Assembly: GCA_019749915.1 (NCBI GenBank)
Contig: JAIEPE010000012.1
Location: 1 to 48,870 of the forward strand
DNA: 48,870 bases
Origin: Alphaproteobacteria bacterium
GTDB lineage: Bacteria > Pseudomonadota > Alphaproteobacteria > UBA9655
Direction: 5' to 3'
Shown here: one piece after another, positions 11,428-21,330 of the stretch
Position numbering within the stretch: position 1 is the stretch's first letter
How the letters are laid out: each line of letters begins with the position of its first letter
Made by a program: the position numbers and the translations under genes
The notes under the pieces: generated by a model
What the model was told of the DNA's origin: nothing
Databases searched by the model: none
The model's input: only the letters and a program-made list of their open reading frames with translations

Positions 11428-13089
11428 ATGAATATATCAAAGAAGTTGAAATTAAGCCTCTTAGCAACGAGCATACTGTTCTTTCCTAAAGCAGGGCATA
11501 CCATGATGACCCCTGAGGATAAAACGTCTTCAGCGGGACCATCTATACAAGCACATACACCTGACCAAGAACGTCCAGTTTTCAATAGCCTACTACCAGT
11601 GGGTCTTTCAAATCAAGTTCCAACCCCCTCTACTGATTATAGAGCAGGTTCAAATCGGATGAAACAGCTTTTTGGCCAAGCTTTTATACCAAATGAAAGA
11701 ATCAACCAACAGTTAACTTTACTTGGGTCTACAAGTCCAGAAAATTTTCAAGAGATAACAGAGGCTATTCGTACACAACTTGTAGAAAAATTTACTACTT
11801 CTAACACGTATTCATCTAGATCATCGACAGCTATTGACCCTGTTCTTCTAGCTTCTCTACAAGATGTTGTTTCCTTTGCACTGACTCTTTCCAAAGAAGA
11901 AATAGAGCAGCGTTCAAAAGGGATGATCCGTACAATAGTTGACTTAAATAACGCTTTCCCTTCCTTCCAACACACTGTGTTGCCGTCATTCCTTTGTCCT
12001 CAGACAGAGGAAGAAGTAGATCGATCTTATAATGTGCAACTTTCCGAACTGCTTAGAAGAACTCCTAATTTGCTTTGTTTTTTTAAAGATCTCTTGAAAC
12101 TTGATCCCCGTCAAATAACATACCGTACCGAGGTAATTAAGAAGAGTGCTGGCTCTTTACTGCCAAATAGGCCGTACACTTACATAAAGGAGTGGGAAGA
12201 AAAAGCTTTCTCCATAATGGAATTCTTGTTGAAGCTTAAAACTCAAGATATTATTGACCGTGCAGAGTCTATGAAAAAGTTGATGTCCTTTTCTTCTACA
12301 CGCGATTACGAATTTTACACCCCAGTAAAACAAGCAGCAGCGCTTTTAGGTACCTCTACATTGATGGAAAGAGCGGATGAATTTCTTAACCTTTTAAATG
12401 CATCACCTGCGTTAGAGCTAATAGCTAATAAGCTGTCTTATCTTGCAGTAGAACTTAATCCAGTGGATTTTAGGCACTACGTTGCTTCTCAAAACTCACA
12501 GACTCTCTTGATTAACTTGCATCATAGCTACTCTTGCCTAGACCCGCTTACGTTTATTGAACAGATTAAATCGGAACTTGCTGTAGCTGCCCCCTCGAGT
12601 AGTAGTAGTGCCCCTACAAGCAGCAGCAGTTCAATTCCATCGGTACAGCCTGCAAATCCTGCTGATGAGCTTGCTTTGCAAGCAAGCGCTACCAAGTTCC
12701 AGATGGGAGAACCTAATTCCTACCAAACAACTGGATTTTCTGCCTTTGAGGGGTCACATAGATGGACTGTAGGAAATAAAGCTTCAATAACACTTCCTTT
12801 AGCAGAAATGAAGCCTCGCCCCTCCAGCATTTCTTTTTTGAATACGAAAGGCCTTATAACTCCTACTCACTCACAAACGCTAACCGTAAAGGTGAATCGG
12901 AAGTTAGGGAATAGGTATGTTTATACACCCGGCAATAATAATCATACACTTGAGATCCCTCTGCCTAAAGATGGCCCAGTAGTAATTCAATTTGAAATCT
13001 CAAATGCGGCAAGTCCTTCTGCATTAGGGATTAATGCTGACAAAAGAGAGCTTGGCATATCATTTGGAGAGGTCCAGTTTCAGTATTGA
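11428..13089 (+). CDS. Large exported modular repeat protein (family member C)
   Basis: 553 residues. Residues 1-26 form a signal peptide (MNISKKLKL, hydrophobic run, KAGHT). Residues 30-390 look helical with many short charged segments and are not obviously related to members A, B or D. A Ser-rich linker written mainly in AGT/AGC codons spans about residues 390-415. One copy of the shared module of about 130 residues ends the protein (about 421-553), with HRWTVG, TLPL, VKVN, IPLP and LGISF. AGGAG lies 5-6 bases before the ATG. The 5' flank is shared with trxB and the 3' flank with member A. Probably exported; the function is unknown. Confidence 0.8.
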   Translation: MNISKKLKLSLLATSILFFPKAGHTMMTPEDKTSSAGPSIQAHTPDQERPVFNSLLPVGLSNQVPTPSTDYRAGSNRMKQLFGQAFIPNERINQQLTLLGSTSPENFQEITEAIRTQLVEKFTTSNTYSSRSSTAIDPVLLASLQDVVSFALTLSKEEIEQRSKGMIRTIVDLNNAFPSFQHTVLPSFLCPQTEEEVDRSYNVQLSELLRRTPNLLCFFKDLLKLDPRQITYRTEVIKKSAGSLLPNRPYTYIKEWEEKAFSIMEFLLKLKTQDIIDRAESMKKLMSFSSTRDYEFYTPVKQAAALLGTSTLMERADEFLNLLNASPALELIANKLSYLAVELNPVDFRHYVASQNSQTLLINLHHSYSCLDPLTFIEQIKSELAVAAPSSSSSAPTSSSSSIPSVQPANPADELALQASATKFQMGEPNSYQTTGFSAFEGSHRWTVGNKASITLPLAEMKPRPSSISFLNTKGLITPTHSQTLTVKVNRKLGNRYVYTPGNNNHTLEIPLPKDGPVVIQFEISNAASPSALGINADKRELGISFGEVQFQY

Positions 13090-13424: not shown

Positions 13425-13514
13425 TTGGCCGTAGAATATTATATTGGCTTCGTAGTCGCCATTTTCCTCTTAGGATACCTGGTTTACTTCCTTATTGACA
13501 TCTCATCAACATAA
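13425..13514 (+). CDS. kdpF: Potassium-transporting ATPase subunit F (KdpF)
   Basis: A 29-residue single-span membrane peptide beginning at a TTG with a GGGGAG ribosome binding site about 11 bases upstream. The hydrophobic core FLLGYLVYFLI closely matches the KdpF pattern (LLGYLVYAL in E. coli). In known systems KdpF stabilises the KdpABC potassium pump in the inner membrane. It is correctly placed as the first gene before kdpA, but 165 bases away, with a structured inverted-repeat element in between. Its identification rests on this short motif plus context, which together are strong. Confidence 0.85.
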   Translation: MAVEYYIGFVVAIFLLGYLVYFLIDISST

Positions 13515-13526
13515 AAGAAGGGGGTA

Positions 13527-13650
13527 CCTCATGAAAATTTTCAATCTTTTTTTAATGACAGAGGCTGATTTATCAGCTGAGACAGGATCACCTCTCCCCT
13601 TTGTGGGAGAGGTTAAAAAAACTTTATTTTTCTCATAAATTTTCATGAGG
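13527..13650. repeat. Structured inverted-repeat element between kdpF and kdpA
   Basis: A perfect 14-bp inverted repeat (CCTCATGAAAATTT at 13527-13540, AAATTTTCATGAGG at 13637-13650) encloses two smaller perfect hairpins: GCTGA/TCAGC at 13564-13577, and CCTCTCCC/GGGAGAGG at 13591-13612 with a 6-base loop. As RNA this would fold into a three-way junction within the kdp transcript, just ahead of the kdpA ribosome binding site. It may be an inserted small palindromic element, an attenuator, or an RNA-processing site that sets kdpF and kdpA levels. Confidence 0.75.
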
Positions 13651-13679
13651 CGACTCTGCGTAAAGGAAGGGGATAAGGA

Positions 13680-15392
13680 ATGACTTTAAACGGCATTTTA
13701 CAAATTGCTCTCTTATTTACAACCCTTCTTTTTCTCATCAAGCCCGTTGGGATTTACCTTTATCGTGTCTATGAAACCCCTAGCCTCTTTCCTCTTTTTA
13801 ATCGTCTAGAAGGCAAGCTTTTAAATTGGTGTTGCTTTAAACCCGAACAACAGAACTGGAAAGCCTACCTTAAATCACTTTTGATTTTTAACATCATGGG
13901 AGTTGCCATTCTTTTTTGTATTCAGCGTCTTCAGCCCTTCCTTCCCTTAAATCCTGAGAATTTTCAAGCAGTGCCATGGGCCTTGGCTTTAAATACAGCC
14001 GTCAGCTTTGTCACCAACACCAATTGGCAAGCCTATAGTAGTGAACCTACCATGAGTTATTTTACACAGATGGTCGGCCTCACTTGGCAAAACTTTGTGT
14101 CTGCAGGAACGGGTATGGCCGCTTTTTTGGCTTTTTCTCGGGGGCTCAGTCGCCACTCAACTTCATCTCAGGATATCCTTTTAGGAAATTTTTGGGTGGA
14201 CCTTTTGCGGTCTGTTTTCTATGTGTTTTTGCCTGGAGCTTTCATTATAGCTCTTTTATTTATTTCCCAAGGCGTGATTCAAAATTTTTCACCAACTCTT
14301 GAGATTACAACTCTTGAAGGAGGCCGTGAACTTATTTCCATGGGACCTGTTGCCTCCCAAGAGGCCATCAAAGTCTTAGGAACCAATGGGGGAGGTTTTT
14401 TTGGAGCAAACTCAGCCCATCCCTTTGAAAATCCAACGCCCTTCACTAACTTTCTTCAGATGCTCTCTATGATCTTAATCCCGGGAGCTTTGACCTATAC
14501 CTATGGAAAAATGATCCAGAGTCAAAAGCAAGGCTGGTCCATTTTCATCGCCATGGTAATTCTCTCCTTAATGGGAATTCTAGCCATCTATTATTTTGAA
14601 TCCCAGCTCAACCCTCTACTTCACGGGTTGGATCTAGATCAAACTCCTGGCAATCTTGAAGGGAAGGAAGTTCGTTTTGGTATCTTAGGGTCGGCCCTTT
14701 TTGCCAACCTAACAACCGACACCTCTTGTGGAGCCACAAATTGCCTTCATGACAGTTTTACGCCTTTAGGTGGACTTATTCTTCTTTTGAATATCCTCAT
14801 CGGTGAGATCGTCTTTGGTGGCGTGGGTGTGGGGTTATTCAACATGCTCCTTTTTATTATCATTAGCGTATTCATGGCAGGTCTGATGGTTGGCCGAACT
14901 CCTGAATATTTAGGAAAAAAAATTGAAGGTAAGGAAGTGCGTTTCGCCATTCTCTCTATTGCACTCTACCCTTTAATTATCTTGGTAGGCGCTGCTATAT
15001 CGGTTTTATCGCCTTCAGCCCTTGGCTCTCTTCATAATGGAGGCCCTCATGGTTTCAGCGAAATCCTTTATGCCTATACAAGCGCCACTCACAATAATGG
15101 CTCCGCCTTTGATGGTCTTGATGCAAACACCTCTTGGTATAATCTCTCCTTGGCCCTGGCGATGTTTGTAGGGCGTTTTTTTCCTATCTACTTAGGACTT
15201 TCCATCGCAGGTTTAATGGTTAACAAAAAAATTATCCAGCCCAGCGCCGGCACCTTTCCAACACAAGGTGCTCTTTTCATTTGGCTTCTGATAGGCGTTA
15301 TCTTAATTGTAGGGGCATTAACTTTTTTCCCCGTACTGGCCATCGGCCCTTTCATCGAATATATCGACCTATGGCAGGGGAGGTCCTTTTAA
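13680..15392 (+). CDS. kdpA: Potassium-transporting ATPase subunit A (KdpA)
   Basis: Potassium-binding, channel-like subunit of the high-affinity KdpFABC pump in the inner membrane. 570 residues, close to the 557 of E. coli, with about ten hydrophobic spans. Conserved filter regions are visible: TNTNWQAY near residue 112, GTNGGGFFGANSAHPFENP near 234, TTDTSCGATNC near 350 and HNNGSAFDGL near 472. GGAAGGGGATAAGGA before the ATG gives a good ribosome binding site. Its stop shares one base with the kdpB start (TAATG), a sign of coupled translation. Confidence 0.97.
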   Translation: MTLNGILQIALLFTTLLFLIKPVGIYLYRVYETPSLFPLFNRLEGKLLNWCCFKPEQQNWKAYLKSLLIFNIMGVAILFCIQRLQPFLPLNPENFQAVPWALALNTAVSFVTNTNWQAYSSEPTMSYFTQMVGLTWQNFVSAGTGMAAFLAFSRGLSRHSTSSQDILLGNFWVDLLRSVFYVFLPGAFIIALLFISQGVIQNFSPTLEITTLEGGRELISMGPVASQEAIKVLGTNGGGFFGANSAHPFENPTPFTNFLQMLSMILIPGALTYTYGKMIQSQKQGWSIFIAMVILSLMGILAIYYFESQLNPLLHGLDLDQTPGNLEGKEVRFGILGSALFANLTTDTSCGATNCLHDSFTPLGGLILLLNILIGEIVFGGVGVGLFNMLLFIIISVFMAGLMVGRTPEYLGKKIEGKEVRFAILSIALYPLIILVGAAISVLSPSALGSLHNGGPHGFSEILYAYTSATHNNGSAFDGLDANTSWYNLSLALAMFVGRFFPIYLGLSIAGLMVNKKIIQPSAGTFPTQGALFIWLLIGVILIVGALTFFPVLAIGPFIEYIDLWQGRSF

Positions 15393-17422
15393 TGGCTAAG
15401 CTTTCAAACCATTTTATGAGGGAAGCCCTTTGGAATACTTTCAAACGGCTGGATCCCCGTTATCTTAAAAAACATCCGGTCATGTTCGTTGTTCTTTTAA
15501 GTGCAAGCCTTACAACACTCATCGTAGTACGTGACTTTTTTTACCCCCCACTTTTGCATGAACCCCTTTGGTTTACGACCTCTGTTTCTATGTGGCTTTG
15601 GTTTACCCTATTGTTTGCTAATGCTTCCGAAGCCTTTGCCGAAGGGAAAGGAAAGGCTCATGCTTCAAGCCTTAAAGCCCTTGCCCAAAAAATGACTGCC
15701 CGTCGTATAGTAAATAATGAGAAAGAGGAAATGATCTCCGCCAGCGATTTAAGGCGCGATGACGTCATCAAAGTTATCGCGGGGGAGTTTATTCCCTCTG
15801 ATGGAGAAATTATTGAAGGTATCGCTGCCATTGATGAATCCGCCATTACAGGAGAATCGGCACCCGTTATTCGGGAAAGTGATAGCGATAGATCCACAGT
15901 TACCGCAGGCACAAAACTAATCTCAAATCAGCTCCTCATCCGTATCATCTCCAATCCCGGAGAAAGTTTTTTGGATCAAATGATCAGTCTTGTTCAAGCC
16001 GCCAGGCGGCAAAAAACGCCTAATGAGATTGCGCTTCAGGTCCTTCTGGTCGGACTGACCATCATTTTTTTAATTGTGTGCACAACCCTCGTTCCCTTTG
16101 GATTTTATTTAAACTCTAAACTTTCCCTCACGGTTATTGTTTCTCTGCTCGTGTGCCTTATTCCTACCACCATTGGTGGACTTGTTTCCGCCATTGGTAT
16201 CTCGGGCATTGAACGAGCTTTACGCAAAAACATCCTCGCCATGAGTGGAAAGGCTGTTGAAACCGCAGGAGACATTGACGTTTTGCTCTTGGACAAAACA
16301 GGAACCATCACCCTTGGCAACCGGATGCCTGTTGAATTTATTCCATTTAAGGGGGTGGATATTAAGGAATTTGCCCGTACCATTGAGTTCTCTAGCTTAG
16401 CCGACCGCACCCCAGAGGGCCGCTCTATCCTTGAATTTATCGAAAAAAATTATGGTCGTTCTGTGAGTGAAAAAGATGCTGAGGCCCTGACCTTCATTCC
16501 CTTTAGCGCTGAAACCCGCTTGAGTGGCTGCGAAGGACCTTCTCTATCTGTACGCAAGGGAGCTTGCGACGCTATACAAAGCCTTGTTCTCGCCAAGAAA
16601 GGAACAATTCCCCCAGAATTTTTAACAGTTATGGAAAAAATCAGCCTTACAGGGGGAACGCCCCTTGCGGTCGCCATGAATGGAAAACTCCTTGGAATCA
16701 TTCATCTTAAAGATATTATCAAGCCAGGAATTCAAGAACGCTTTCAACGTCTCCGGAAAATGGGCATTCATACAGTTATGATTACGGGAGATAACCCTTT
16801 AACGGCAAGCACCATTGCTGAAGAAGTAGGGGTGGATAACTTTTTAGCAGAAGCCACACCAGAAAAAAAACTTAACTTTATTAAAGCACAGCAAGCCAAA
16901 GGCTACCTCGTTGCCATGACCGGCGATGGCACCAATGACGCTCCTGCTCTTGCTCAAGCTGATCTGGGGATTGCTATGAACTCCGGCACACAAGCAGCCA
17001 AGGAAGCAGCAAATATGGTTGATTTAGATAGCAACCCCACCAAAATTTTAGAGGTCATTGAAATCGGCAAACAACTTCTGATGACAAGAGGCTGTTTGAC
17101 AACTTTTTCAATTGCCAATGATGTGGCCAAATACTTCGCCATTATCCCAGCCATCTTCCTTCTCTCTATCCCTGAATTTGAAATCTTAAACATTATGAAC
17201 TTGTCTTCTCCCTATTCGGCCATTCTAGCAACGGTTATCTTTAATGCCCTGATCATAGTGGCACTAATTCCTTTGGCTTTTAGAGGTGTGAAATACCGGC
17301 CCCGAGGAGCAAAAAGTCTCTTGGCCCACTCTCTTTTTATTTATGGAGTGGGGGGAATTTTTAGCCCTTTTATTGGCATTAAACTCCTTGATATGCTCTT
17401 ACTCAATTTGGGGCTGATTTAA
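15392..17422 (+). CDS. kdpB: Potassium-transporting ATPase ATP-binding subunit B (KdpB)
   Basis: P-type ATPase subunit that powers potassium uptake by KdpFABC. 676 residues from an ATG overlapping the kdpA stop; GGGGAGG lies 8 bases upstream. The actuator TGES motif is at residues 153-156, the phosphorylated aspartate D301 is in DKTGTIT, and the hinge motif GDGTNDAPALAQAD is near residue 515. The Ser of the TGES motif, whose phosphorylation inhibits E. coli KdpB, is conserved. It is followed immediately by kdpC with no spacer. Confidence 0.97.
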   Translation: MAKLSNHFMREALWNTFKRLDPRYLKKHPVMFVVLLSASLTTLIVVRDFFYPPLLHEPLWFTTSVSMWLWFTLLFANASEAFAEGKGKAHASSLKALAQKMTARRIVNNEKEEMISASDLRRDDVIKVIAGEFIPSDGEIIEGIAAIDESAITGESAPVIRESDSDRSTVTAGTKLISNQLLIRIISNPGESFLDQMISLVQAARRQKTPNEIALQVLLVGLTIIFLIVCTTLVPFGFYLNSKLSLTVIVSLLVCLIPTTIGGLVSAIGISGIERALRKNILAMSGKAVETAGDIDVLLLDKTGTITLGNRMPVEFIPFKGVDIKEFARTIEFSSLADRTPEGRSILEFIEKNYGRSVSEKDAEALTFIPFSAETRLSGCEGPSLSVRKGACDAIQSLVLAKKGTIPPEFLTVMEKISLTGGTPLAVAMNGKLLGIIHLKDIIKPGIQERFQRLRKMGIHTVMITGDNPLTASTIAEEVGVDNFLAEATPEKKLNFIKAQQAKGYLVAMTGDGTNDAPALAQADLGIAMNSGTQAAKEAANMVDLDSNPTKILEVIEIGKQLLMTRGCLTTFSIANDVAKYFAIIPAIFLLSIPEFEILNIMNLSSPYSAILATVIFNALIIVALIPLAFRGVKYRPRGAKSLLAHSLFIYGVGGIFSPFIGIKLLDMLLLNLGLI

Positions 17423-17977
17423 ATGAAAAAAGACCTTCTCATTGCTTTCTCTGTTTCTCTCATCACCCTATTTTTTACGGGCGTGGTCTATCCCTTTCTT
17501 ATAACCCAAATCGGAGGCTCCTTGTTTCCTTATAAGACTTCTGGAAGCCTTATCAAAGATGAGCAGGGCGGAGTCATTGGCTCGGAGCTCCTCAGACAGA
17601 ATTTCAAAAATCCAGCCTACTTTTTTCCACGCCCTTCAGCAGAAGAGACTAATTTAGCTCCCACCTCAAAACTATTGATCACTCGCATTCAAGCGAGAAT
17701 TGCCGAGATTAAAAAGATCAATACAAACCCCATTCCCATCGATTTAGTTACAAGTTCTGCCAGCGGGCTTGATCCCCATATTTCTAAGGAAGCTGCGCTG
17801 TGGCAGGCTCCCCAGATTGCTCTTCACCGTAACGTAAATCTTAAACATATCACGGCCTTAATTGAACGCCTGAGGGAAAGCCCTCAATTTTATGTTTTAG
17901 GGGAAAGTCGCCTCAATGTTCTAAAGTTAAATTTAGCTCTAGATGTTTCTTTTGGTGTCCCTGTGGGGGGTTTATGA
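17423..17977 (+). CDS. kdpC: Potassium-transporting ATPase subunit C (KdpC)
   Basis: Single-span accessory subunit that anchors the complex and raises the ATP affinity of KdpB. 184 residues with one amino-terminal transmembrane helix (about 6-30) and a periplasmic domain carrying the family blocks NFKNPAYFFPRPSA and SASGLDPHIS. It begins directly after the kdpB stop, and its own stop overlaps the start of the kdpD-like gene by four bases. All four pump subunits are intact, so a working pump is likely. Confidence 0.95.
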   Translation: MKKDLLIAFSVSLITLFFTGVVYPFLITQIGGSLFPYKTSGSLIKDEQGGVIGSELLRQNFKNPAYFFPRPSAEETNLAPTSKLLITRIQARIAEIKKINTNPIPIDLVTSSASGLDPHISKEAALWQAPQIALHRNVNLKHITALIERLRESPQFYVLGESRLNVLKLNLALDVSFGVPVGGL

Positions 17978-19131
17978 AAAAAAATTTACAGCCCCCTCAA
18001 GATTTTCTAACTCTCCTTCAAAAAGCCAATCGCGGCCGATTAAAGGTCTATACAGGACCCGTTGCGGGTGTAGGCAAGACTTACCGCATGTTAGAAGAGG
18101 CTCATTCTTTGCAAGCTCAAGGCGCAGATGTTGTTTTGGCCTTCATTGAAACCCATGGACGGAAAAAACTTCAGGAACTCTTGAAAGGGCTCGAAGTCAT
18201 CCCGCGTAAAAAATACGAATACAAAGGCGTTACCGTTGAAGAAATGGATGTGGATGCAGTACTCAAGCGCAAACCCCAAATTGCTATTGTGGATGAAGCA
18301 GCTCATACGAATACCCCTCTTTGCCGAAATACAAAAAGATATCAGGATATTCTCGAACTTTTAAATGCAGGAATCAACGTCATCTGTGCCTTTAATATAC
18401 AACATTTAGAAAGCCTGAGTGATATCGTTAAAAAATTTACGAACGTTACGATTTATGAAACCATTCCTGACAGTTTTCTCAAACATGCTGATCAAGTCAT
18501 TAACGTTGACCTTGGCGTCGAGGATATTATTGATCGCCTTCAGTCAGGGCAAATTTATGGATCAGAAAAAATATCTCTTGCTCTTGAACATTTCTTTAAG
18601 CAAGAAAATCTTATCAAATTGAGAGAACTTGCTTTACGAGAAGTTGCTGAATCCATTGAACAAACGAACTATTTACCAAGAAATGTATCTCTGAAGGAGG
18701 CAATTTTTGCCAGCCACCAAATCATGGTCTGTTTTTTGCCGGAAAGATGGAGTCAGCGCACTCTCCTAAAGAAAGCCTCCCGTCTGGCAGGGCGCCTAAG
18801 CAAAGAATGGTTTGTCGTCTATACAGAAACGGAAGAAGATAGCCCCGAGAAAATTGATCTTGAAAAACAGCGCCATCTTTTTTCTGACATTCAGTTTGCA
18901 AAGGATTTAGGAGCTCATATTATTCATTTCAAGACGGAAAACCGCGTCAATGCTTGGCTCGAATTTGCTGAGAAAGAATCCATTACCCAACTTATTATTG
19001 GCCGCCCAAAGGAAAGTTGGTGGCGTGAAGCCCTTGGTTTAGATACCCTCAATTCTCTTCTCAAACAATCGAAAGATCTTGATATCTTTATTATGGGTTA
19101 CAATAAGAACGAAATTGAGAGCGACACTTGA
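17974..19131 (+). CDS. kdpD: Truncated KdpD: sensor and USP domains without kinase
   Basis: 385 residues matching only the cytoplasmic front half of KdpD. Walker A GPVAGVGKT is at 28-36, a Walker B-like VDEAAHTN is at 106-113, and NIQHLESL at 141-148 matches the KdpD family block. A universal-stress-protein-like domain covers about residues 245-375, where c-di-AMP binds in some KdpD proteins. The four transmembrane helices and the histidine kinase domain of full-length KdpD (about 890 residues in E. coli) are missing. The end overlaps the next gene, a separate membrane histidine kinase, by four bases. I recall similar short KdpD plus kinase pairs in Bacteroidetes. It probably modulates the neighbouring kinase. 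Confidence 0.9.
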   Translation: MKKNLQPPQDFLTLLQKANRGRLKVYTGPVAGVGKTYRMLEEAHSLQAQGADVVLAFIETHGRKKLQELLKGLEVIPRKKYEYKGVTVEEMDVDAVLKRKPQIAIVDEAAHTNTPLCRNTKRYQDILELLNAGINVICAFNIQHLESLSDIVKKFTNVTIYETIPDSFLKHADQVINVDLGVEDIIDRLQSGQIYGSEKISLALEHFFKQENLIKLRELALREVAESIEQTNYLPRNVSLKEAIFASHQIMVCFLPERWSQRTLLKKASRLAGRLSKEWFVVYTETEEDSPEKIDLEKQRHLFSDIQFAKDLGAHIIHFKTENRVNAWLEFAEKESITQLIIGRPKESWWREALGLDTLNSLLKQSKDLDIFIMGYNKNEIESDT

Positions 19132-20948
19132 TGAAAATAAGAACACAACTCTTTTTCGCCCAACTTCCCACCCTTTTAATCATAGGATTCATCACCTGGT
19201 TTTTCATTTTTTTCATGTTAGCCTTAAGAGATAAGGCTGATATTATTCTCGTTCAAAACTTTAAAACCATCTCCTCTATGAATGATATTCATAAATACCT
19301 TGAAGAACTCAATGAACTTTATATCAAAAATCCCCAATTTATTTCAAAGGAACCAAAGAAATTTAATAGTCTAAAGTCAAAGATTGACCAACAACTTTTT
19401 ATTCAGGACAAAAATATAAAAAATGATGAGGAAAAGAAGCTAACAAAAAAGTTAGAAGAAAGTTGGAAAATATACCAAATTCAGGTTTCATCTCCTTCTA
19501 ATAACTTACTTTCAGGTGAACAGAAAAAATACCAAGAGGTCAAAGAGACCATCGATGCCATCAACACCTTAAACCTAGAGGGTCTAAGCCAAACAAAAGA
19601 AAACTTTACTTTATTTATCTCTTATTTTGTTATCTTTATCCTGGGCGCGGCCACCGTTAGCTTACTATTTGGACTTTATCTTTCCTGGTTTTTCTCAGGT
19701 TTATTTTTAAAACCTCTCTCGACCATGAGAGATACAATGCGTCAAATGGGGACAGAAGAAAAAACAATCTTTTTAAATCTAAAAGGCTCGGAAGAAATTG
19801 AAAAACTCTCTAATGAATTTAACCTTATGTCAATTCGACTCCAGGGCTTTCAGAAAGATTCTTTGCAAAAAGCGATTGAAAGCTATGAAACTATAAAAGA
19901 TGCCCTTGATTCTTGGCCGGAACCTATCCTCATTTTAAATCAAATTTCCAATTTTACCTGTATCAACAAAGCTGCTCATAAAATTCTGAAACTTTCCCAA
20001 GATCATAACAAGATTCCTTCTCTCTTCCACGTTAAAGCAGATTGGAAAACACCTCTCCTTAATATCTGCAATACGGTTCTTACAACCAAGGATCGGTATC
20101 ATCCTGATAAAGAAAAGGATGTGCTCTCCCTTATCGTTGAAAATAAGAAAGCTTTTTATCTTCCCTGGGCTTTCCCCATCAAAAAATCCGGTGCTGATTA
20201 TCCAAGTTCTTTGGAAGGAGTCTTCATTATCTTGCAAGATCTTCTCCACAAACCCCTCTCTTCAGCAACCAAGGTTGATGCCTATGAAAGGATTGCCCAC
20301 AACTTTCAAACACCTCTCAATGACGTGCGCATGGCGATTCATCTTTGCTCTGAAGGAACGGTAGGTCCTTTAACAGATAAGCAACAAGAAATTCTCATTT
20401 CTGCCCGAGAAAAATGCGATCAGCTTGCAAAGCTCACTCAAAGTTTACTTAGCCTTTCTACTCATGTGAAAAAAGAACTCCCTTCTGTTCAGAACGTGGA
20501 TTTAAGTTCACTCCTTTCAAGTCTTGTTAAAAGTGCAAAACTTGAAGCAGATAAAAAAAATACCTCAATCCTTTTTGAAACTCCACCATACCTCGCCCCC
20601 TTAAAGGTCAATAAAGAAGAGGTAGAAACGATCCTTAGAAATCTTCTTCAGAATGCTGTTTACTATGCCACCCCAGGTTCGGAAATAAAAGTTCTACTTC
20701 AAGAAATCGAGAATAAATCTATTGAATTTAGCGTTACCAACCACGGACCTCTCATTCCTCCTGAATACCGTAAAGATATCTTTAAAAAGAATTTTAAAGT
20801 CCCTGGACAATCCAAGAAACGAGCTGGCTTGGGTCTATACATTGCTAAAAAGAGTGTGCAGGGGATGAAGGGGAGAATTGGCTTTCGAAATGCAGGAAAG
20901 AATGGTACAGTTTTTTGGGTGAAGTTTCCTCTTTCTCCCACAACTTAA
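19128..20948 (+). CDS. Membrane sensor histidine kinase, partner of the short KdpD
   Basis: 606 residues. A first membrane helix (about 11-33), a periplasmic helical segment (34-160) and a second helix (162-190) are followed by a HAMP-like linker (190-245), a PAS-like domain (250-375), a dimerisation/phosphoacceptor domain with H391 in AHNFQTPL, and an ATPase domain with the N box near N509 and GLGLYIAK at 567-574. The acidic residue normally next to the histidine is Asn here, and the usual DxGxG box reads NHGPL, so activity may be altered. It ends the kdp operon and overlaps kdpD by four bases. No response regulator is encoded nearby; the target regulator is unknown. Confidence 0.88.
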   Translation: MMKIRTQLFFAQLPTLLIIGFITWFFIFFMLALRDKADIILVQNFKTISSMNDIHKYLEELNELYIKNPQFISKEPKKFNSLKSKIDQQLFIQDKNIKNDEEKKLTKKLEESWKIYQIQVSSPSNNLLSGEQKKYQEVKETIDAINTLNLEGLSQTKENFTLFISYFVIFILGAATVSLLFGLYLSWFFSGLFLKPLSTMRDTMRQMGTEEKTIFLNLKGSEEIEKLSNEFNLMSIRLQGFQKDSLQKAIESYETIKDALDSWPEPILILNQISNFTCINKAAHKILKLSQDHNKIPSLFHVKADWKTPLLNICNTVLTTKDRYHPDKEKDVLSLIVENKKAFYLPWAFPIKKSGADYPSSLEGVFIILQDLLHKPLSSATKVDAYERIAHNFQTPLNDVRMAIHLCSEGTVGPLTDKQQEILISAREKCDQLAKLTQSLLSLSTHVKKELPSVQNVDLSSLLSSLVKSAKLEADKKNTSILFETPPYLAPLKVNKEEVETILRNLLQNAVYYATPGSEIKVLLQEIENKSIEFSVTNHGPLIPPEYRKDIFKKNFKVPGQSKKRAGLGLYIAKKSVQGMKGRIGFRNAGKNGTVFWVKFPLSPTT

Positions 20949-20979: not shown

Positions 20980-21330
20980 ATGATTTATAAAAATTGTATT
21001 GATGCTTGCTTTGATTGTGTTAAAGCCTGCGACCGTTGTTCTTGCGAAGGATGTGAGACCTCAAAAGAGTGCCTACCACTTCAGGAGTGTTGCATTTTAA
21101 GTGCAGAAGTTTGCAATCTTGTAGGACGCCTTACAGCGCGGGGAATTTGTTGTGCTGAACTTTACGATATATGTGCAAAAATCTGCGACGATTGCGCCAA
21201 AGAGTGCTCAAAAGTAGATAACGAGTATTCAAAGACCTGCGCTGAAGCTTGTAAAAAATGTGCAGAAACTTGCCGTACTTGCAGCGCAGATTGCGCTAAA
21301 TGTGCAACAAAAAAAACAGCCTGCCATTAA
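20980..21330 (+). CDS. Cys-rich four-helix-bundle copper-binding protein
   Basis: 116 residues with 25 cysteines arranged as CxxxC and CxxC pairs along amphipathic helices, the pattern of Csp-type copper storage proteins, whose four-helix bundle is lined with thiolates that hold Cu(I). No signal peptide is seen, suggesting a cytosolic form. AGGGAG is 8 bases or so before the ATG. It follows the histidine kinase by 31 bases and could ride on the kdp transcript. A perfect 12-bp hairpin follows it. Together with the CopA ATPase at 38991 it suggests copper exposure, for example inside a host phagosome. Confidence 0.88.
   Translation: MIYKNCIDACFDCVKACDRCSCEGCETSKECLPLQECCILSAEVCNLVGRLTARGICCAELYDICAKICDDCAKECSKVDNEYSKTCAEACKKCAETCRTCSADCAKCATKKTACH

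What the first reader, a model, noticed from the sequence alone, without database searches (positions are those of the whole stretch)
17974..20948. Split KdpD without KdpE: an unusual potassium-sensing arrangement
KdpD is reduced to its ATP-binding and USP parts and the kinase is a separate membrane protein of unrelated membrane architecture; both overlap by four bases, so they are co-translated. No receiver-domain regulator lies in this window. The kinase has Asn in place of the usual acidic residue after the phosphoacceptor His391, and a changed DxGxG box. The short KdpD may regulate a kinase acting on a distant regulator, or act through direct protein contact. I recall similar splits in Bacteroidetes, so lateral transfer is possible.
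Basis: partly seen in the sequence, partly recalled or inferred. Interest (0 to 1): 0.6.

Follow-up and report, generated by a model that had tools for sequence, protein, structure and literature searches.

The report
Split potassium sensor with decaying kinase
A group of uncultured Alphaproteobacteria carries a laterally acquired potassium-pump operon in which the usual one-piece sensor KdpD is two proteins and no partner regulator was found; the split is a known arrangement, but here the histidine kinase has lost key catalytic residues while staying under selection, so it may now serve as a membrane sensor for the pump-inhibiting half instead of switching genes on.

Summary
Window 13425-20948 is a kdpFABC operon followed by a 385-aa KdpD (KdpD + USP domains only) and a separate two-TM HAMP/PAS histidine kinase. 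No KdpE is adjacent or was found elsewhere in the 97%-complete genome. The split itself is known (Deinococcus, Bacteroidota, deltaproteobacteria; PMC11018627, PMC5716572). A KdpD tree puts this genus with those short forms, apart from full-length alphaproteobacterial KdpD (100/100), so lateral acquisition is supported. Several relatives keep a sigma-54 NtrC-type regulator near the cassette; no sigma-54 was found in 15 genomes of this genus, while both sister genera have it. The less ordinary part is the kinase: non-genus relatives have canonical motifs, but here the G1-box Asp is Asn (9 of 10), the second Gly is lost (10 of 10) and the H+4 Thr is mostly lost, while His and the N, F and G2 boxes are kept and selection is purifying. 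The serine-kinase residues of short KdpD and its target KdpB Ser are intact, and no diadenylate cyclase was found, so the published c-di-AMP input seems unavailable. Best reading: KdpD is the pump-inhibiting serine kinase and the kinase-like protein its membrane input partner. That coupling is inferred, not shown.

The parts
13425..13514 (+). kdpF, TTG start, LAVEYYIGFVVAIFLLGYLVYFLIDISST (29 codons)
   Evidence: translation; the stretch is conserved upstream of kdpA in four relatives. Identified as KdpF by its single-TM look and position, not by a profile match.
13680..15392 (+). kdpA
   Evidence: PF03814, E 7e-225
15410..17422 (+). kdpB; start 15410 or 15389; keeps TGES with Ser150 = E. coli Ser162, and Asp295 = Asp307
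   Evidence: PF00122 and PF00702; residue mapping to E. coli
17423..17977 (+). kdpC
   Evidence: PF02669, E 6e-51
17974..19131 (+). Short KdpD (KdpD domain + USP), putative atypical serine kinase; Walker A GPVAGVGKT 28-36, Walker B DE 107-108, Tyr37/Arg188
   Evidence: PF02702; NF038185 'KdpD_non_kinase' 354 bits, below its 550 cut-off; alignment with E. coli KdpD
19128..20948 (+). Separate histidine-kinase-like protein (TM1, extracytoplasmic helical bundle, TM2, HAMP, PAS, DHp, CA) with degenerate H and G1 boxes

Best explanation
The operon is a laterally acquired kdpFABC-shortKdpD-kinase cassette. In its wider family this cassette can work with a sigma-54-dependent NtrC-type regulator; in this genus no such regulator and no sigma-54 were found. 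The short KdpD most likely still acts as the atypical serine kinase that phosphorylates KdpB Ser150 (E. coli Ser162) and so shuts the pump when potassium is sufficient. The co-encoded kinase-like membrane protein, with changed ATP-pocket and phosphotransfer motifs but under purifying selection, most likely no longer works as a normal kinase for a regulator. It probably passes a membrane, ion or osmotic signal to the short KdpD by direct contact, as the C-terminal half of a one-piece KdpD does in cis. Shown here: gene content, motifs, absences at the sensitivity of the searches, phylogeny, selection. Taken from work on E. coli and Deinococcus KdpD: the serine-kinase activity and contact between KdpD halves. 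Inferred: loss of kinase activity, and the coupling between the two proteins.
For: Serine-kinase residues and the KdpB TGES target are conserved, and short KdpD is under strong purifying selection (omega 0.04-0.06); the biochemistry is published for E. coli and D. geothermalis (PMC11018627). No KdpE-like protein among seven receiver proteins. No sigma-54 in 15 of 15 genus genomes, present in both sister genera. Sigma-54 regulators lie near the cassette in L037, L039, L040 and L043. No diadenylate cyclase in 17 of 17 genomes, so the c-di-AMP input shown for a short KdpD seems unavailable. Kinase motifs: G1 Asp lost in 9 of 10 and second Gly in 10 of 10 genus members, in none of nine non-genus homologues; six other histidine kinases of the same genome keep the Asp. 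Selection is relaxed but still purifying (DHp omega 0.06-0.10 against 0-0.04 for EnvZ in close pairs of the same genomes). The kinase follows KdpD in every genus locus that extends far enough. In E. coli the KdpD N-terminal domain contacts the C-terminal half (PMC2714519).
Against: The phospho-acceptor His is kept in 10 of 10, and the N, F and G2 boxes are intact, so residual kinase or phosphotransfer activity is possible. One member (L030) keeps the G1 Asp. The DHp domain is among the best conserved parts of the kinase, as expected if His chemistry or dimerisation still matters. No direct evidence of contact between the two proteins. The genome is 97% complete, so a missed regulator is possible.
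Confidence: 0.5

Rival explanations
1. The kinase is still catalytic, perhaps slow, and phosphorylates an unlinked regulator, such as the orphan receiver protein at G000:C51:903-1784 or the OmpR-like regulator, giving ordinary transcriptional control.
For: His, N, F and G2 boxes kept; DHp under purifying selection. The orphan receiver occurs in all 12 Kdp-carrying genus genomes and in none of the three without Kdp.
Against: G1 Asp and Gly lost, TP motif after the His broken in most. The orphan receiver also occurs in the sister genera G001 and G002, where no KdpD was found; its C-terminal half shows no DNA-binding domain and is missing in two Kdp-carrying genomes. The three Kdp-less genus genomes are small and possibly related, and one is only 63% complete, so the co-occurrence is weak. 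The OmpR-like regulator has its own adjacent EnvZ-like kinase.
Confidence: 0.3
2. The kinase is a decaying leftover of the acquired two-component system with no present role; short KdpD works alone.
For: Motif loss, and relaxed constraint relative to EnvZ.
Against: Omega 0.10-0.16 over the whole gene and 0.04-0.26 for the single domains in comparisons where dS is not saturated, full-length open frames in all genomes where the gene is complete, gene order with KdpD kept down to about 40% kinase identity.
Confidence: 0.1
3. Short KdpD is controlled by c-di-AMP through its USP domain, as in Deinococcus geothermalis, and the kinase is unrelated to it.
For: Same KdpD/USP architecture as DgKdpD (PMC11018627).
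Against: No diadenylate cyclase domain in any of 17 genomes of the order.
Confidence: 0.04

Closest known systems
KdpD/Usp short KdpD with a separate histidine kinase (PMC11018627; NCBIfam NF038185 KdpD_non_kinase; Deinococcus KdpD-N + SK + RR, PMC5716572)
   Same: KdpD and USP domains only, serine-kinase residues kept, separate membrane kinase gene beside it
   Different: No response regulator found; no diadenylate cyclase; kinase with degenerate catalytic motifs; the commonest separate kinase in PMC11018627 is TM/GAF/DHpCA, whereas this one is 4HB-HAMP-PAS; scores below the NF038185 cut-off
kdpABC-shortKdpD-kinase cassette of deltaproteobacteria, Riflebacteria and Bacteroidota (L032-L043, L148)
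   Same: Gene order, KdpD 49-55% identical (delta/Riflebacteria/Planctomycete) or about 40% (Bacteroidota), kinase of the same architecture at 23-28%
   Different: Those kinases have canonical H and G1 boxes, and several loci carry a sigma-54 NtrC-type regulator
E. coli KdpDE
   Same: Same pump, same KdpD and USP domains
   Different: One-piece KdpD with four TM segments, and KdpE; KdpD only about 39% identical over the shared part
DivL (Caulobacter pseudokinase, PMC4211667)
   Same: A histidine-kinase fold with weakened ATP binding reused as a signalling partner
   Different: DivL lost the His and senses a response regulator; here the His stays and the proposed partner is a serine kinase

Membership tests
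Short KdpD (KdpD/Usp serine kinase) | KdpD domain with G-x5-GKT Walker A and DE Walker B | tested here: met
   Residues 28-36 and 107-108
Short KdpD (KdpD/Usp serine kinase) | Adenine pair Trp39/Arg190 of E. coli | tested here: inconclusive
   Arg188 kept, Trp is Tyr37; aromatic, effect unknown
Short KdpD (KdpD/Usp serine kinase) | Target Ser in KdpB TGES | tested here: met
   KdpB Ser150 = E. coli Ser162
Short KdpD (KdpD/Usp serine kinase) | Phosphorylates KdpB | not testable with these tools
   Needs biochemistry
NCBIfam NF038185 KdpD_non_kinase | Score of at least 550 bits | tested here: not met
   354 bits, though aligned over nearly the whole model
KdpDE two-component system | KdpE-type OmpR-family regulator | tested here: not met
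   Seven receiver proteins, none KdpE-like
KdpDE two-component system | KdpD with TM, GAF and HK domains on one chain | tested here: not met
   385-aa KdpD plus separate kinase
Active HisKA histidine kinase | Phospho-acceptor His | tested here: met
   10 of 10 genus members
Active HisKA histidine kinase | G1 box DxGxG | tested here: not met
   NHGPLI in the window; Asp lost in 9 of 10, second Gly in 10 of 10
Active HisKA histidine kinase | N, F and G2 boxes | tested here: met
c-di-AMP-controlled short KdpD | Diadenylate cyclase in the genome | tested here: not met
   0 of 17 genomes

The most novel reading that the evidence does not exclude
A histidine kinase that lost its response regulator (and whose host lost sigma-54) has become a non-catalytic membrane sensor whose output is a separate P-loop serine kinase that inhibits the potassium pump: a two-component kinase rewired into a purely post-translational switch without any response regulator.
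Probability: 0.35. Interest if true: 0.65.

Novelty: new variant of a known kind. Interest (0 to 1): 0.4.

Why it matters
PMC11018627 raises the question how short KdpD serine kinases sense potassium when the TM/GAF sensor is missing, and answers it with c-di-AMP for one species. In this genus no c-di-AMP synthase was found, but a co-encoded membrane kinase-like protein with changed catalytic motifs is kept. That makes a testable case for how the post-translational arm gets its input, and for how an acquired two-component system adapts after its regulator and sigma factor are gone.

Tried and rejected
c-di-AMP control: rejected, no diadenylate cyclase. Riboswitch control: only two tRNAs found in the window at Rfam gathering scores. 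KdpE elsewhere: none among seven receivers. Orphan receiver P0001 as dedicated partner: co-occurs with Kdp within the genus but is also in sister genera without KdpD and is reduced to the receiver in two genomes. Pseudogene: rejected by dN/dS. Vertical descent with alphaproteobacterial Kdp: rejected by the KdpD tree. Upstream conservation was inspected for a regulator site, but the conserved block largely overlaps kdpF and gave no clear motif. Foldseek on the kinase model returned ordinary histidine kinases (WalK, HK853; DivL at rank 37), as expected; the model is of modest confidence, pTM 0.33.

Full report
What is there. The operon is kdpF (13425-13514), kdpA, kdpB, kdpC, a 385-aa KdpD (17974-19131) and a kinase of about 605 aa (19128 or 19131-20948), all on the + strand with little or no space between kdpA and the kinase. 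KdpD holds the KdpD domain and a USP-like part and no kinase domain of the histidine type. The kinase has two hydrophobic segments, and its AlphaFold model shows an extracytoplasmic helical bundle, a HAMP-like stretch, a PAS-like domain, DHp and CA (pLDDT 75, pTM 0.33).

No regulator. Twelve of 15 genomes of the genus carry KdpD. The kinase follows KdpD wherever the contig runs far enough, and no response-regulator gene was seen beside it. In the window's own genome seven receiver domains were found. By sequence and neighbours they read as NtrX beside NtrY, CtrA, an OmpR-like regulator beside an EnvZ-like kinase, an orphan receiver of 293 aa, a CckA-like hybrid, a receiver-EAL and a receiver-GGDEF-EAL. 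KdpE is not among the best 25 NCBIfam matches of the OmpR-like one, which scores best against OmpR.

Where it came from. Among 385 alphaproteobacterial genomes searched with this KdpD, nearly all other strong matches are to long KdpD at 33-41% identity; one other clearly short form (G050) is 52% identical. The KdpD tree places the genus with short KdpD of deltaproteobacteria, Riflebacteria, a planctomycete and G050, and apart from full-length alphaproteobacterial and E. coli KdpD with 100/100 support; the exact sister is unresolved. The same split occurs in Parabacteroides and is published for Deinococcus (PMC5716572). So the split is an established kind, and lateral acquisition is well supported.

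What the wider family has. A sigma-54 NtrC-type regulator lies near the cassette in L037 (downstream), L043 (upstream of kdpA), L039 and L040, and a receiver protein follows the kinase in L034. Not every relative has one nearby: none was seen in the 17 kb of L038. In this genus no sigma-54 gene was found in any of 15 genomes, while both sister genera have one. Whether sigma-54 was lost before or after the cassette arrived is not known.

The kinase. In nine non-genus homologues the H box reads HEF[RK]TPLTS (HQF in one) and the G1 box has the form DxGxGI. In the ten genus members the His is always kept, H+1 is Glu, Asp or Asn, H+4 is Thr only twice, and Pro at H+5 is lost in three. The G1 Asp is Asn in nine of ten and the second Gly is replaced in all ten, whereas the N, F and G2 boxes are kept. 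Six other histidine kinases of the same genome keep the Asp. From general knowledge, this Asp contacts the adenine in GHKL ATPases, and Asp-to-Asn there is a classic ATP-binding mutant of Hsp90; that is recalled, not tested here. Omega is 0.10-0.15 for the whole gene in close pairs, 0.06-0.10 in DHp and 0.11-0.24 in CA; for EnvZ in close pairs of the same genomes DHp is 0-0.04 and CA 0.08-0.11; short KdpD is 0.04-0.06. So the protein is under selection but its catalytic core is less constrained. The omega values are Nei-Gojobori estimates from few pairs and carry no error bars.

The serine-kinase half. In PMC11018627 the KdpD domain of E. coli phosphorylates KdpB Ser162 through Walker A and B motifs, and a short KdpD of Deinococcus geothermalis does so under control of c-di-AMP. 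In the window Walker A, Walker B and Arg190 are kept, Trp39 is Tyr, and KdpB keeps TGES. No diadenylate cyclase domain was found in 17 genomes of the order. If the short KdpD senses potassium, the input must come from elsewhere. The co-encoded membrane protein is the obvious candidate, and E. coli KdpD halves are known to contact each other (PMC2714519). This step is inference.

Verdict. The part worth a second look is the genus-wide change in the kinase motifs together with the missing regulator, sigma-54 and c-di-AMP synthase. A catalytically weak kinase acting on an unlinked regulator remains a serious rival.

Noticed in passing
G000:C51:903-1784 (L144): Orphan receiver protein whose C-terminal half has no Pfam match; by eye it looks like a degenerate PP2C/SpoIIE phosphatase. 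Conserved in the family, reduced to the receiver in G005 and G006.
   Followed up: partly
window 20980-21330: Cysteine-rich DUF326 protein just downstream of the kinase, kept there in several genus members and absent or replaced in others.
   Followed up: no
genus g1 (15 genomes): Sigma-54 not found in the whole genus though both sister genera have it, while an NtrX-like protein without a GAFTGA motif (own genome, L002) is kept.
   Followed up: partly
window 13515-13679: Extra stretch of roughly 140 bases between kdpF and kdpA, absent in four relatives.
   Followed up: no
window 11428-13089: 553-aa protein with a likely signal peptide and Ser-rich stretches upstream of kdp; a shorter relative at 38% identity lies at the same place in L025.
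   Followed up: no
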